A stretch of 64,000 bases of DNA from Flammeovirgaceae bacterium SG7u.111 (GTDB lineage: Bacteria > Bacteroidota > Bacteroidia > Cytophagales > Flammeovirgaceae): positions 4,293,635 through 4,357,634 of the forward strand of contig CP139021.1 in assembly GCA_034044135.1 (NCBI GenBank), read 5' to 3'. The position numbers were made by a program, and so were the translations under genes. Below the pieces are notes generated by a model. The model did no database searches. It was not told the origin of the DNA and was given only the letters and a program-made list of their open reading frames with translations. Shown here in pieces: positions 37,236-50,576 of this stretch (position 1 is its first letter; each line of letters begins with the position of its first letter).

Positions 37236-37350
37236 CCTCCCTAATCCGTGTCATTCCTGACCTGATCGGGAATCTCCCTCCTACTATCCTACAATGTCCT
37301 GCTGCTCCTCAAAAAGTAAAGCCCCGCAACAAGCACTACTGAACAATGGG
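37236..37350. repeat. dispersed hairpin-headed repeat, copy A
   Basis: Contains GTGTCAT, a stem TTCCTGA / TCGGGAA with loop CCTGA, then ATCTCCC, a short core ACTATCCTACAATG and CTCAAAAAG followed by GCCCCGCAAC. The same order of blocks occurs at 43805-45190 (interrupted) and 50250-50400. Confidence 0.7.
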
Positions 37351-43804: not shown

Positions 43805-43853
43805 CCTCCCTAACCCTTGTCATGCCGTACTTGATACGGCACCTCCCACCTAC
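43805..43853. repeat. dispersed hairpin repeat, copy B left part
   Basis: CTCCCTAACCCTTGTCAT, then stem TGCCGTA / TACGGCA with loop CTTGA, then CCTCCCACCTAC. It aligns with the head of copies A and C and ends where the IS110 element begins. Confidence 0.7.
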
Positions 43854-44099
43854 CTTAGATTTGTGCAGTTGTATTATTCGAAGGATTGTATTTACTTGGG
43901 AAAGCAACTAATCATTCTTTTGGCCAAGAAGGGAACAAGCGACTTAATCCCTCCTATGAACAAGATTCATGTGTGTACCAAATGCTTGTCTCCCTCCTGG
44001 GCATAGGCCTATATAAGAGTTTGCCACCGTTAAGGTAGTTAGGCTGTGCACCGGGACCTTGGCCTCCAGATTTTGTCCAACATAAAAATACGGATAACC
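43854..44099 (+). ncRNA. candidate bridge RNA region of the IS110 element
   Basis: The noncoding left end is 246 bases long, where IS110-group elements such as IS621 encode a bridge RNA that pairs with target and donor DNA. It contains CCCTCCTAT at 43949-43957, similar to the target side (CCTCCTACTATCC in copy A), and a small palindrome ATAGGCCTAT at about 44005-44014. No covariance test was possible, so the RNA is a prediction from position. Confidence 0.4.
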
Positions 44100-45106
44100 A
44101 TGGAATTTAAAAACTTTATCGGCATCGACATCAGCAAAGGCACCATCGACCTTGCCCTCTTGACCGGGCACGGCGAGCTGGCCAGCCTCAAATGGGACAA
44201 CGACGGGAAGGTGCTGTCCAAGGGGCTACGGCTTCTTTTCAAGGAGCATGGGCTCGACAAAGAGACGGCCCTGCTATGTGCGGAGCACACGGGACAGTTC
44301 GGCAACAAGCTTGTAGAGACATGCCTTTGCCTGGGGCTCAACCTCTGGATGGAATCGCCCTATGCCATCTCCCGCTCGCAAGGGCTCACAAGGGGAAAGA
44401 CGACAAGGTGGATGCGGCCAGGATAGCATACTATGCCAAACGGTTTTCTGACAAGGCAAAACCGGTACGACCTACATCAAAGGCTATCAGCAAGTTAAAG
44501 CTGCTATGCGCCGAGCGGGACCTTGCCGTCAGGGACCTGTCCAAGTACAAGGGGCAGCTAAAACAAGAAGAGGGGTTCCTCGACAAAGGGTACTTTGTGG
44601 GGAAGACAAAAAGGGTAAAAAAGATCATGTCCGCCTACGAGAAAACGATCAAAGAGATCGAGGGGGAGATAGACGTGCTCATAGAAAACGACCCCGACAT
44701 CAAGGACAACTTTGACAATATCGTCTCCATCGAGGGGGTGGGCAGGCAGACCGCTATCGCAACGATCGTCGCCACGGAGAATTTCCAGAAGTTCGACGAC
44801 CCCAGAAAGTTCGCCTGCCATATAGGCTGCGCCCCGTTCAGATACCAATCCGGCACGAGCGTCAACTCAAGGAACAAGGTCTCGCACAGGGCAAACAAGA
44901 AGCTCAAAAAAATCTTCCACCTGGCCGCTCTCTCCACGCTCAGGACCAACGGGCAATTGAGAGAATATTTTGACCGGAAGCTCGCCGAGGGAAAGCACAA
45001 GATGTCCATCATCAACGCGATCCGTTCAAAGCTCGTCCACCGAATCTTTGCCATCGTCAAACAAAACAGGAAATATGAAAAAATTTATACCCATACACTT
45101 GTTTAA
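44100..45106 (+). pseudogene. IS110-family transposase, frameshifted
   Basis: Start at 44100 (MEFKNFIGIDISKGTIDLAL). The N-terminal DEDD/RuvC-like domain has GIDISK, CAEHTG and, after a frameshift, GKDDKVDAARIAYYA. The frameshift lies in the A run at 44396-44398 inside RGKDDK: one missing A makes the first frame end at 44426, before the last acidic pair. The second frame continues through the Transposase_20 domain (IEGVGRQTAIATIVATENF, GCAPFRYQSGTSV) to TAA at 45106. The corrected length of about 336 residues is normal. No active transposase would be made from this copy unless the shift is bypassed or is a sequencing error. Confidence 0.85.
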
Positions 45107-45119
45107 ACCATAAGAGTAC

Positions 45120-45195
45120 TATTCTGCAATACCCCGCTGATATTCAAAAAGGATAAGTTCGGTAAAGTTTGTTAGTGCGCAATGAGGAGATACCC
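45120..45195. repeat. dispersed hairpin repeat, copy B right part
   Basis: TATTCTGCAATACCCCGCTGATATTCAAAAAGG, a GC-poor stretch and GCGCAATGAGGAGATACCCC match the later part of copy C (CCGCAATGCACCACTGCTATTCAAAAAG ... GGAGATACC). It continues the copy interrupted by the IS. Confidence 0.65.
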
Positions 45196-46444: not shown

Positions 46445-47800
46445 ATGATGAAAAAAGCAGAATCTTTAGAAGATATATATAGGTGTTTCAAATCAGAACC
46501 ACTTCAAATGAACGAACTTGATGGTTTTTATTTGGATGTAAAAGCAGGAAGGGGTGGCCCAGACCCTCGAAAGAGGATTGAGCGTGCATTAAGAGATAAT
46601 TTCGATATCGATAAGCATATTCTTTTTGTTGGCTACAAAGGATGTGGCAAAAGCACTGAGCTTAATCATTTACAGAAAGATATCCAAGACGAATTTTTGG
46701 TACTCAATTACTCGGTAATGAAAGAGCTTGACCCTGTTCATTTGAACTATATTGAGCTATTCATCGTGACAATGGAGCAATTATTTTCATTTGCCGATTC
46801 TGAAGACAAAATACATATAAGCCCAGAATATTTGAAAAACATCACACATTGGCTGGGCACAAAAGAGATTAAAGAAATTAATGATAAGTTTATAGGCTTA
46901 GATACCGAAGCAGGGGCAAAAGGAACTATTGGCGTCCCCTACCTCAAAGAGTTTTTCTACAAGTTTAAGTTTTCTGCCAAAAGCAGCAAGTCACTTAAAG
47001 AAACAATTAAACGAAACGTAGAACCAAAACTCTCCGACTTGATAGAACATTGCAATAATTTGATAAGGGAGATAAAATTGCAACTTAACAACATTGGAAA
47101 AAATGACTTGGTCATCATCATAGAAGACTTGGATAAAATCCCTATTGATAGGGCACAAGAGCTATTCTTCAATTATACCAACCAGCTTGTATCATTACAG
47201 ACTAATGTAGTTTTCACCTTCCCTATCTCCATTTACAACAGCATAAAGTATAATAACATACGAGAATACTTTAGCATGGTAAGAGAGCTACCTATGATCA
47301 AAATTGCTGAGAAAGATGGTTCAGATAATGAACAAGGAATGGACGTAATGCGAAAGATGGTAGAAAAAAGAATGGATACATCAACCCTCATTGAATCCTC
47401 AGAAATACTAAACCAAATGATACGGGATAGCGGAGGGTGTATCCGTGACTTATTTAGGATGATTCATGAAGCTGGGGAAATTGCCCTTGACTACGACGAG
47501 GAAAAAATCACTGAAAAGCACCGACACCAATCCTACTTAGCACTAAAAAAAGAATACGAAAACACTATAGCAGACAACACAGTAGACGGCAAAAAATATC
47601 CAGTAGAAGGATATTACGAAGTGCTAGTAAACTTGGCAAAAAACACTACAAAAAAAGTAGATAACACAGAAGAGCTTTTACACTTGAGAGATAATCTTTG
47701 TGTATTGGGCTATAATGGAGAGGGATGGTGCGATGTACACCCAATTGTAAAAAGTATTTTAAAGGAAAGAGGAAAATGGGATGGAAATCAAGAAGCTTAA
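46445..47800 (+). CDS. P-loop ATPase of an ATPase/TPR pair
   Basis: A 451-residue cytoplasmic NTPase. Walker A is GYKGCGKST (63-71) after a hydrophobic strand KHILFV, and the following ELNHLQKDIQ is typical of a STAND/AAA-like class. Walker B is LVIIIEDLDK (about 221-231), with an acidic pair for hydrolysis. A strand NVVFTFPISIYNSI follows and the C-terminal part ends in a winged-helix-like domain (LLHLRDNLCVLGYNGEGWCDVHPIVKSIL). The first 40 residues (LEDIYRCFKSEPLQMNELDGFYLD) are also conserved-looking. It overlaps the TPR gene by 20 bases, so the two are made together. By analogy with two-gene NTPase/TPR conflict systems it could gate a defence response, but that is inference. Confidence 0.8.
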   Translation: MMKKAESLEDIYRCFKSEPLQMNELDGFYLDVKAGRGGPDPRKRIERALRDNFDIDKHILFVGYKGCGKSTELNHLQKDIQDEFLVLNYSVMKELDPVHLNYIELFIVTMEQLFSFADSEDKIHISPEYLKNITHWLGTKEIKEINDKFIGLDTEAGAKGTIGVPYLKEFFYKFKFSAKSSKSLKETIKRNVEPKLSDLIEHCNNLIREIKLQLNNIGKNDLVIIIEDLDKIPIDRAQELFFNYTNQLVSLQTNVVFTFPISIYNSIKYNNIREYFSMVRELPMIKIAEKDGSDNEQGMDVMRKMVEKRMDTSTLIESSEILNQMIRDSGGCIRDLFRMIHEAGEIALDYDEEKITEKHRHQSYLALKKEYENTIADNTVDGKKYPVEGYYEVLVNLAKNTTKKVDNTEELLHLRDNLCVLGYNGEGWCDVHPIVKSILKERGKWDGNQEA

Positions 47801-50018
47801 CCCTCAAAGTAACTATTATACACTCGTAAATAAATTAGGAAGGTTCATTACAAGAGAAGATGAACGTGGGTATTGCTTTGTGACAACTTCTGACCAACGA
47901 GTGACCCCTGGAGTTAATCAACTACTTTTAGAGAGATCAAAAAGTAAAGGGAAAAATACCAAAGTAGTCCATATTGATAAAAAAAGTGACATAGAGGTTG
48001 TACAACAAATGAGGAATGCGCGTGATGAACAACCAAAAGCTACCGCACTCATTGTCCAAAACATTAATGACTTCATTTTAAAAGATAAAGAAGCATTAAC
48101 CCAAAAAGGGTCTGACTTTTTATTAACATTAAATTTTTCTAGGGAGGCTATTAATCAGTTAAATATCCCTATAATTTTTTGGACAACAGAAGACACTTTA
48201 CGTATTATCTCCAATAGGGCAAATGACTTATTCTCCCAAAGAAGAATGCTCACTGTTCATTTTGAAAGCCATCCAGATGACTTTTTGCCAGATGAAACAT
48301 TAGAAAACAGGTTTCAAGAAAGCTATAAGAGTAGAGAAGAGTATACGCACTTGGAAACAAAAGTAAAATTGCTAAAAAAACAGTTACACCAAGCTGAAAA
48401 AGACAACTACCCTCCCCAAAAACTATTTACCGAACTTGCTCTTCCTCTTGCACAAATATATTCTGAAATTGACCTCCATCAAGATGCTATTCTGACCATT
48501 GAAAAATACAAAGTTGAAGTAGATAAAAACAAAGATGCATATTTGATCTATCAAATTGGGAAAATATATGGAGAGGCTAAGAAATATGAAAAAGCAATTA
48601 AGCTACTAGAGGATGCGACTAATACAACTATCCACGATCCTTTCTTAGCTTCCTATATATTTTTTGAACTCGGAAAACTGTACCAAGAACTTGGCAAGTT
48701 CGACAAGGCATTGGATTTCTTTGAAAAAGACCTTCAATTGACAGAGGAGCTGTTCAAGGACAACCCGCACAGCGAGAGCCTAAAGAACGGGCTGGCGAAC
48801 TCCTTCGGAATGACAGGTGATCTCTTGCTACAAATGGGCAAGGTTCAGGAAGGACTTGAACAAATTCAAAAAGCTACTTCTCTTTTCGAGGAGCTGTTCA
48901 AGGACAACCCACACAGCGAGAGCCTAAAGGACGGGCTGGCCATTTCGTATGAAAAACTCGGCGACATTTTTAAGGCACAGGGAAAGTTCGACAAGGCATT
49001 GGATTTCTTTGAAAAAGAGACCGTCCTGTTCGAGGAGCTGTTCAAGGACAACCCGCACAGCGAGAGCCTAAAGGACGGGCTGGCCATTTCGTATGCTAAA
49101 CTCGGCGACATTTTTAAGGCGCAGGGAAAGTTCGACAAGGCATTGGATTTCTTTGAAAAACAAAGCAGGTTATCAGAGGAGCTGTTCAAGAACAACCCGC
49201 ACAGCGAGAACCTAAAGAACGGGCTGGCGATTTCGTATGCTAAACTCGGCGACATTTTTAAGGCGCAGGGAAAGTTCGACAAGGCATTGGATTTCTTTGA
49301 AAAACGAAGCAGGCTTTCAGAGGAGCTGTTCAAGGACAACCCAAACAGCGAGAGCCTAAAGAACGGGCTGGCGAACTCCTTCGGGATGACAGGTGATCTC
49401 TTGCTACAAATGGGCAAGGTTCAGGAAGGACTTGAACAAATTCAAAAAGCTACTTCTCTTTTCGAGGAGCTGTTCAAGGACAACCCACACAGCGAGAGCC
49501 TAAAGGACGGGCTGGCCATTTCGTATGCTAAACTCGGCGACATTTTTAAGGCGCATGGAAAGTTCGACAAGGCATTGGATTTCTTTGAAAAAGACCTTCA
49601 ATTGACAGAGGAGCTGTTCAAGGACAACCCGCACAGCGAGAGCCTAAAGAACGGGCTGGCGATTTCGTATGCTAAGTTAGGGATGGTTTATTTACAAATT
49701 GATCAAGTAAATAATGCATATAATCATATCAAAAAATACAAATCAATTTCTTATGAACTCTACAAGCACAACAATAGTAATATTCAAATAGTAAGCAATT
49801 ATGCTGAAGCATTATCAACTGAGTTAGGAATGCAACTACTTATTAATAGGGATATTGATATACAAAAACTCAATGAGCCAACAGATATGTTCCAACGGCT
49901 TTTTGATAAAACTCAAAGCCCTTATTACCAGAAAAAAGTAGCACTTGTACAGCAAATGGCAGACTCAAACAGTAAGGAAAATCTGAAAAAGATAATTATT
50001 GAAATACTTTCATTTTAA
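47781..50018 (+). CDS. TPR protein with degenerate NTPase-like N-terminus
   Basis: A 745-residue protein. Residues 1-185 look like a P-loop-fold domain without a Walker A motif; the strings ATALIVQNINDF, LLTLNFSREAINQLNIPIIFWTTED and RRMLTVHFE recall the N-termini of TPR proteins coupled to NTPases. Residues about 200-320 contain ordinary TPR-like helices. Residues about 322-657 are seven TPR units of exactly 48 residues (ELFKDNPHSESLKNGLAISY and KLGDIFKAQGKFDKALDFFE). The rest is a helical cap. The repeats would make a superhelical ligand-binding surface. There are no known effector domains, so activity may lie in the partner ATPase or in another protein. Confidence 0.8.
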   Translation: MEIKKLNPQSNYYTLVNKLGRFITREDERGYCFVTTSDQRVTPGVNQLLLERSKSKGKNTKVVHIDKKSDIEVVQQMRNARDEQPKATALIVQNINDFILKDKEALTQKGSDFLLTLNFSREAINQLNIPIIFWTTEDTLRIISNRANDLFSQRRMLTVHFESHPDDFLPDETLENRFQESYKSREEYTHLETKVKLLKKQLHQAEKDNYPPQKLFTELALPLAQIYSEIDLHQDAILTIEKYKVEVDKNKDAYLIYQIGKIYGEAKKYEKAIKLLEDATNTTIHDPFLASYIFFELGKLYQELGKFDKALDFFEKDLQLTEELFKDNPHSESLKNGLANSFGMTGDLLLQMGKVQEGLEQIQKATSLFEELFKDNPHSESLKDGLAISYEKLGDIFKAQGKFDKALDFFEKETVLFEELFKDNPHSESLKDGLAISYAKLGDIFKAQGKFDKALDFFEKQSRLSEELFKNNPHSENLKNGLAISYAKLGDIFKAQGKFDKALDFFEKRSRLSEELFKDNPNSESLKNGLANSFGMTGDLLLQMGKVQEGLEQIQKATSLFEELFKDNPHSESLKDGLAISYAKLGDIFKAHGKFDKALDFFEKDLQLTEELFKDNPHSESLKNGLAISYAKLGMVYLQIDQVNNAYNHIKKYKSISYELYKHNNSNIQIVSNYAEALSTELGMQLLINRDIDIQKLNEPTDMFQRLFDKTQSPYYQKKVALVQQMADSNSKENLKKIIIEILSF
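48744..49751 (+). repeat. seven tandem 144-bp TPR-coding units
   Basis: The string GAGGAGCTGTTCAAGGA recurs at 48744, 48888, 49032, 49176, 49320, 49464 and 49608: exact 144-base spacing. Units are nearly identical in DNA, not only in protein. Units 1 and 5 share a distinct variant (NSFGMTGDLLLQMGKVQEGL) and differ by about one base in the variant half. The repeats are clearly richer in GC than the rest of the gene. Confidence 0.95.
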
Positions 50019-50576
50019 ATAAAGAAGCTTCCAGAAGTGCCTCAATAGGATTTATCAAAGAAGCAGAATACCCTATTTTTGCCTTTTCTCCTTTTATTTA
50101 TGCCACAAATCTTCCCATACACGCTGCAAATGGAGATATTTTAGGCAAGGGACTCCCTGTGGAGCAATTTTAGGGTTGAAAAAAGCCAAACAAACTATCC
50201 TTTCCAACTTGATGTTGTCCTACGATAAGTCTAGGAATCTCCACCCCCAACCCGTGTCATTCCCAACTCAATTGGTGCCGATAGCTATCGGCATCCCTCC
50301 GACTAGTCCGCAATGCACCACTGCTATTCAAAAAGAAAGCTCCGCAATGCCTACTGGTGCATGGGTTGGAGATACCGCATCTACGTGCGGCATGACTCCC
50401 TTATCTGTCATTCTGGGCGTAGATACTGGATGATACTTTCAAAGTGGCAACTCATTGGTGAAAATCTTCCTTCCCATAGGAGGTTTCTCCTTTTAATTTT
50501 CTCTATTTTTGCAGAATGCATGCTTCCTGACTCAAGCAGGAAGTGGTGATAAAGACAGAAGGTGTTAAGAGAAAGA
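50019..50576. other. intergenic region with hairpin-headed repeat
   Basis: About 560 bases between the TPR gene and mutS2. The centre holds repeat copy C (50250-50400). The short frames across it follow repeat structure, not protein patterns. The last 100 bases should hold the mutS2 promoter. Confidence 0.5.
50250..50400. repeat. dispersed hairpin-headed repeat, copy C (both heads)
   Basis: Left head: GTGTCATTCCCAACTCAATTGG followed by an 18-bp perfect palindrome TGCCGATAGCTATCGGCA (50276-50293) and TCCCTCC. The core GACTAGTCCGCAATG...CTATTCAAAAAG...CTCCGCAATG resembles copies A and B. The right end is an inverted head: on the minus strand GTCATGCCGCACGTAGATGC then GGTATCTCC. The element therefore has inverted hairpin ends, like a small MITE. 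Confidence 0.65.

What the first reader, a model, noticed from the sequence alone, without database searches (positions are those of the whole stretch)
43805..45195. IS110 element split a repeat and the empty site can be rebuilt
The flanks of the IS110 element (CCTCCCACCTAC on the left and ACTATTCTGCAAT on the right) are two halves of a repeat found intact near 37.28 and 50.30 kb. This gives element ends at about 43854 and 45119 without relying on terminal repeats, and shows the target was a repeat, a preference known for several IS110-family members.
Basis: partly seen in the sequence, partly recalled or inferred. Interest (0 to 1): 0.6.

Follow-up and report, generated by a model that had tools for sequence, protein, structure and literature searches.

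The report
RNA-guided IS110 element in a repeat
The window holds a jumping gene of the IS110 family that landed in a repeat because a guide RNA encoded in the element's own left end matches the repeat's edge; other copies in the same genome carry different guides and mostly sit at correspondingly different sites, which is known IS110 behaviour shown here unusually clearly.

Summary
Joining the flanks without the element rebuilds a REP-like repeat with no gap at the junction (73.8% over 103 bp to the copy near 37.28 kb, E 9e-16). The ends lie at 43854 and about 45118, with an AC core shared by both ends. The whole genome holds 11 full copies. The only other identical copy (L001) has the same ends and the same 11-bp left flank, CTCCCACCTAC, but sits in a single-copy hairpin, not in the repeat. 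So the element does not seek the repeat as such; it seeks a short motif. That motif is matched 8 of 9 by a guide in a predicted bridge RNA in the left end. Nine copies of sister lineages carry other guides. Most sit at sites matching their own guide (permutation p about 2e-4). An independent relative in another Bacteroidota genome shows the same logic with both guide arms. The recombinase is homologous to IS621 and ISCro4, with the catalytic residues aligned to IS621. It is a new IS110 member of a known kind. Mildly interesting extras: a copy with a recombined guide loop, a donor/target core mismatch, and a frameshifted recombinase gene in both copies of the window's lineage.

The parts
43819..43853 (+). 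Left half of the split REP-like repeat (GTCATGCCGTACTTGATACGGCACCTCCCACCTAC), containing the left target
   Evidence: Aligns with 37.28-kb and 50.30-kb repeats
43844..43852 (+). Left target (LT) TCCCACCTA, ending at the first core base A; the wider 11-mer CTCCCACCTAC (43843-43853) occurs 5 times in 7.7 Mb and 2 of the 5 are occupied by this element
43852..43853 (+). Left copy of the core dinucleotide AC (by analogy with IS621)
   Evidence: Junctions of 11 copies; guide registers
43854..45118 (+). IS110-family element, about 1266 bp counting one core; 100% identical to L001 (C1:5313705-5314970)
43922..44064 (+). Predicted bridge RNA: closing stem GGCCAAG/CUUGGCC enclosing a target-binding loop and a donor-binding loop; no Rfam match
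   Evidence: Fold -52.6 kcal/mol, z -2.3; alignment of 11 left ends; Rfam negative
43948..43956 (+). Left target guide TCCCTCCTA (8/9 to its LT, same mismatch in both copies; CCCTCCTA is exact in the repeat at 37.28 kb)
43957..43969 (+). Central hairpin of the target loop, TGAACAAGATTCA
43970..43976 (+). Putative right target guide TGTGTGT (predicts AC..; weak match, 2 of 6 here and 3 of 6 in L001)
44013..44020 (+). Left donor guide ATAAGAGT, identical to the element's right end
   Evidence: invariant in all 11 copies
44031..44036 (+). Right donor guide TAAGGT, reverse complement of ACCTTA at the left end
   Evidence: invariant in all 11 copies
44100..45106 (+). IS110 recombinase gene (DEDD_Tnp_IS110 plus Transposase_20), interrupted by a 1-nt deletion at about 44398 just after the heptamer GGGAAAG; both group-a copies carry it
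   Evidence: intact sister protein matches IS621
45118..45119 (+). Right copy of the core AC; the element's own right end is CATAAGAGTA
45120..45150 (+). Right half of the split repeat (TATTCTGCAATACCCCGCTGATATTCAAAAA)
37240..37316 (+). Uninterrupted relative of the target repeat
50294..50376 (+). Uninterrupted, more diverged relative of the target repeat

Best explanation
This is an IS110-family insertion sequence whose left end encodes a bridge RNA (seekRNA). The donor loop recognises the element's own joined ends (CATAAGAGT-AC-CTTAG). The left guide of the target loop (TCCCTCCTA) recognises the foot of a REP-like repeat or any similar motif (TCCCACCTA). The recombinase inserts a circular form at the AC core without duplicating the target beyond the core. 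The REP was hit because it carries the motif, not because it is a repeat. Shown: ends, empty site, second identical copy at the same 11-mer, an RNA fold of bridge-RNA layout, guide-target correspondence across most copies, recombinase homology. Inferred: that the RNA is transcribed and used, the circular intermediate, and the assignment of the core by analogy with IS621.
For: The two identical copies share exactly the left flank CTCCCACCTAC, a sequence present 5 times in the genome. The left end folds as an outer stem with two internal-loop hairpins, as in IS621 (compared with PMC11208158). Left target guides and left flanks correspond: b2 guide CTCCGACCA is 9/9 at L006, L008, L009; b1 CTCGCTCCA is 8/9 at L003, L004; group a is 8/9 at both copies; the b right guide predicts AGTGGG, seen 6/6 at L003 and L004; permutation p about 2e-4. 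Donor guides are invariant and match the element ends in all 11 copies. A 38%-identical relative in genome G403 has 5 copies in one REP position, with a left guide matching ..CGTTCCTC and a right guide matching AATCGAAAT. The recombinase matches IS621 at E 1.7e-21 with D, E, D, D and S positions aligned.
Against: The right guide of the window element barely matches its right flank (2 of 6). The left guide has the same mismatch in both copies. L005 and L011 fit only with a one-base shift, L007 fits poorly, and L010 fits another copy's left guide better than its own. Copies are related, so the permutation p is not from independent events. No transcription data. The recombinase gene of this lineage is frameshifted.
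Confidence: 0.9

Rival explanations
1. The element targets the REP-like repeat as such (its palindrome), through protein recognition of the hairpin.
For: Window copy and several sister copies lie in REP-like or hairpin sequences; REP targeting by insertion sequences is documented (PMC1525189).
Against: L001 is in a single-copy hairpin with no similarity beyond CTCCCACCTAC; L005 and L007 lie inside RHS-like open frames; flanking motifs change with the guide while the recombinase stays nearly identical.
Confidence: 0.07
2. The two group-a copies share their left flank because one arose from the other with its flank (segmental duplication or gene conversion), not by guided insertion.
For: 100% identity over 1266 bp and an identical 11-bp left flank.
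Against: Identity stops after 11 bp on the left and at once on the right; at L001 the 11-mer is part of a local perfect inverted repeat and at L002 of a REP, so it was there before the insertion.
Confidence: 0.03

Closest known systems
IS621 / ISCro4 (IS110 family, bridge-RNA recombinases; PDB 8wt6, 9t56; PMC11208160, PMC11208158)
   Same: Long non-coding left end with two-loop RNA, guides flanking a central hairpin, recombinase with DEDD and Ser positions, REP targets, no target duplication beyond the core
   Different: Protein E 1.7e-21 only; core AC rather than CT; right target guide weak in the window lineage; target core and donor core differ (AG versus AC) in sister lineages; recombinase frameshifted in the window lineage
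IS1111/IS110 seekRNA elements (PMC11187229)
   Same: Non-coding region upstream of tnp as in the IS110 type; each lineage has its own target set by the RNA
   Different: Here several guide variants with near-identical recombinases coexist in one genome, with one clear guide-loop chimera
REP-targeting insertion sequences such as ISPpu9, ISPpu10, ISPsy8, ISPa11 (PMC1525189)
   Same: Insertion at a fixed place of a REP
   Different: Different phylum and different REP; an identical copy here also uses a non-REP site

Membership tests
IS110 family (IS110 group) | DEDD_Tnp_IS110 (PF01548) plus Transposase_20 (PF02371) recombinase | tested here: met
   IS621 homology
IS110 family (IS110 group) | Catalytic D, E, D, D and S positions of IS621 | tested here: met
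   Alignment to 8wt6, intact sister protein; the residues are also present in the two frames of the window copy
IS110 family (IS110 group) | Long non-coding region upstream of tnp (left end), short right end | tested here: met
   246 bp before ATG 44100, about 12 bp after the stop
IS110 family (IS110 group) | No target duplication beyond the core; no long terminal inverted repeats | tested here: met
   Junctions of 11 copies, rebuilt site
Bridge RNA / seekRNA guided | Structured RNA with target loop and donor loop | tested here: met
   Prediction only; no Rfam family matches
Bridge RNA / seekRNA guided | Donor guides match the element ends | tested here: met
   ATAAGAGT and TAAGGT, invariant in 11 copies
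Bridge RNA / seekRNA guided | Left and right target guides match the insertion site | tested here: inconclusive
   Left guide 8/9 (window) to 9/9; right guide 2/6 in the window, 6/6 in L003 and L004; L005, L007, L010, L011 fit less well
Bridge RNA / seekRNA guided | RNA expressed; circular intermediate formed | not testable with these tools
   No RNA or junction-read data

The most novel reading that the evidence does not exclude
In this genome, IS110 lineages with an identical donor loop change targets by recombining the target-loop module: L010 is 100% L003 over the first 150 alignment columns, which hold the target loop, and 100% L011 from column 226 to the end. In group b the RNA itself specifies different second core bases for donor (AC) and target (AG), and the junctions show donor C at the left and target G at the right in 8 of 9 group-b full copies, as expected if the first-exchanged top strand decides the product.
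Probability: 0.4. Interest if true: 0.45.

Novelty: new member of a known kind. Interest (0 to 1): 0.3.

Why it matters
It gives a Bacteroidota example in which guide variation and target variation can be compared inside a single genome, with a recombined guide loop, so it helps show how IS110 elements acquire new targets in nature. It also shows that 'REP preference' can be a by-product of a short guide match. For annotation it fixes the ends of this unnamed element.

Tried and rejected
Rfam search of the element: nothing. DNA search of 97 relatives: no close copy outside this genome; 395 genomes of the phylum and the GTDB contig scan: full-length relatives at 41% protein identity or less. 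I considered a LINE-like 5' truncation to explain the many solo right ends. I set it aside because the right side usually abuts the stop codon of a convergent gene, while the left side faces repeats, so selection on the neighbouring gene plus deletion explains the asymmetry; this is inference. I considered integron attC sites because of GTTGGGG, but the surroundings are RHS loci and non-coding repeat arrays; no integrase search was made.

Full report
Observation. The window element lies between 43854 and about 45118. The flanks joined at CCTAC|TATTC align with that repeat over 103 bp without a gap at the junction (73.8%, E 9e-16) and with the repeat near 50.30 kb (68%, E 6e-7). The repeat is REP-like: a short palindrome, GTCATTCC..GGAATCTCC, followed by a foot close to CTCCTACTA; a pattern for it finds 5 places in the genome, and one more foot with the window's exact left flank follows a different palindrome at C1:4367230.

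Other copies. The genome (7.7 Mb) holds 11 full copies, about 11 shorter right-end fragments and one left-end fragment in the similarity search. Two full copies are 100% identical (the window copy L002 and L001, group a); nine are 78-80% identical to these (group b and relatives). All begin CTTAGATT and end CATAAGAGTA. L001 has the same left flank, CTCCCACCTAC, but lies in the right arm of a single-copy inverted repeat between two convergent genes. CTCCCACCTAC occurs only five times in the genome, and this element occupies two of the five. So the repeat is sufficient but not necessary; the motif is what is shared.

Mechanism. The left end before the recombinase start codon folds into an outer stem with two hairpins that each carry an internal loop (-52.6 kcal/mol; 5 of 200 shuffles fold as well), the layout described for IS621 (PMC11208158). 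In the alignment of 11 copies the first loop varies and the second is invariant around its guides. The second contains ATAAGAGT and TAAGGT, which match the right end and, as reverse complement, the left end of the element (donor guides). The first contains, on each side of TGAA-CAAGA-TTCA, sequences that follow the flanks: TCCCTCCTA (group a; flank TCCCACCTA, 8/9), CTCGCTCCA (b1; flank CTCGCCCCA at L003 and L004, 8/9), CTCCGACCA (b2; 9/9 at L006, L008, L009). Right guides predict AGTGGG (b; 6/6 at L003, L004), AGCGAC (L011; 5/6) and ACACAC (a; 2-3 of 6). Total matches are 118 against a permutation mean of 93.3, p about 2e-4; the copies are related, so this overstates independence. L005 and L011 match only when shifted by one base (my reading of the sequences), L007 fits poorly, and L010 sits at a site whose left flank fits the b2 guide better than its own. 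An independent relative (38% protein identity) in genome G403 has five copies, each at the same point of a REP, and both its left guide (..CGTTCCTC) and its right guide (reverse complement AATCGAAAT) match.

Protein. The intact sister recombinase matches Pfam DEDD_Tnp_IS110 and Transposase_20 and the solved IS621 and ISCro4 transposases (E 1.7e-21 and 1.2e-20), with the catalytic positions aligned to IS621. Both group-a copies lack one G at about 44398, which splits the gene. No full-length copy of group a without this change was found in the genome. Either the element now moves with recombinase from group b (same donor loop), or a -1 slip on G-GGA-AAG, which would restore RGKDDKVDA, gives some protein, or the assembly is wrong there. 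These cannot be separated here.

Core. In group b the left junction reads A-C and the right junction A-G, except L007, which has A-C at both. Uninterrupted sites of this kind read CCAGTTGGG. So donor and target cores differ in their second base and the products keep donor C at the left and target G at the right. With IS621 geometry (PMC11208158) this is what the top strand would give. This is an inference from junctions and rests on the core assignment by analogy.

Guide-loop recombination. L010 equals L003 (100%) over alignment columns 1-150 and L011 (100%) over columns 226-1273; L009 is L008 with an L010-like patch in columns 151-225. The breakpoints lie by the conserved donor loop. L010's right flank begins like L011's (GCGCCCCCATCG), so L010 looks like a crossover between two copies.

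Verdict. Finding confirmed; interpretation refined from 'targets a repeat' to 'RNA-guided to a short motif that the repeat carries'. It is a new member of a known kind.

Noticed in passing
G000 C1: L012-L017, L019-L023, L029, L048: About a dozen right-end fragments (about 14 to 262 bp) ending at or near CATAAGAGTA, most followed by GTTGGGG/GTGGGG-like sequence and many within about 30 bp of the stop codon of a convergent gene, against one left-end fragment. L013, L017 and L022 have the right target on both sides of the fragment.
   Followed up: partly
L096 (C1:5050000-5062000): Array of about 388-bp non-coding direct repeats next to an RHS/YD-repeat gene, with IS copy L010 and a solo left end in it; several other copies and fragments also lie at RHS loci.
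   Followed up: partly
window 44391-44402: The 1-nt deletion in the recombinase gene directly follows G-GGA-AAG, a possible -1 slippery heptamer in the right frame.
   Followed up: no
window 48667-49738: Tandem 144-bp repeats inside a TPR-like gene (47781-50018) downstream of a putative ATPase gene (46445-47800).
   Followed up: no
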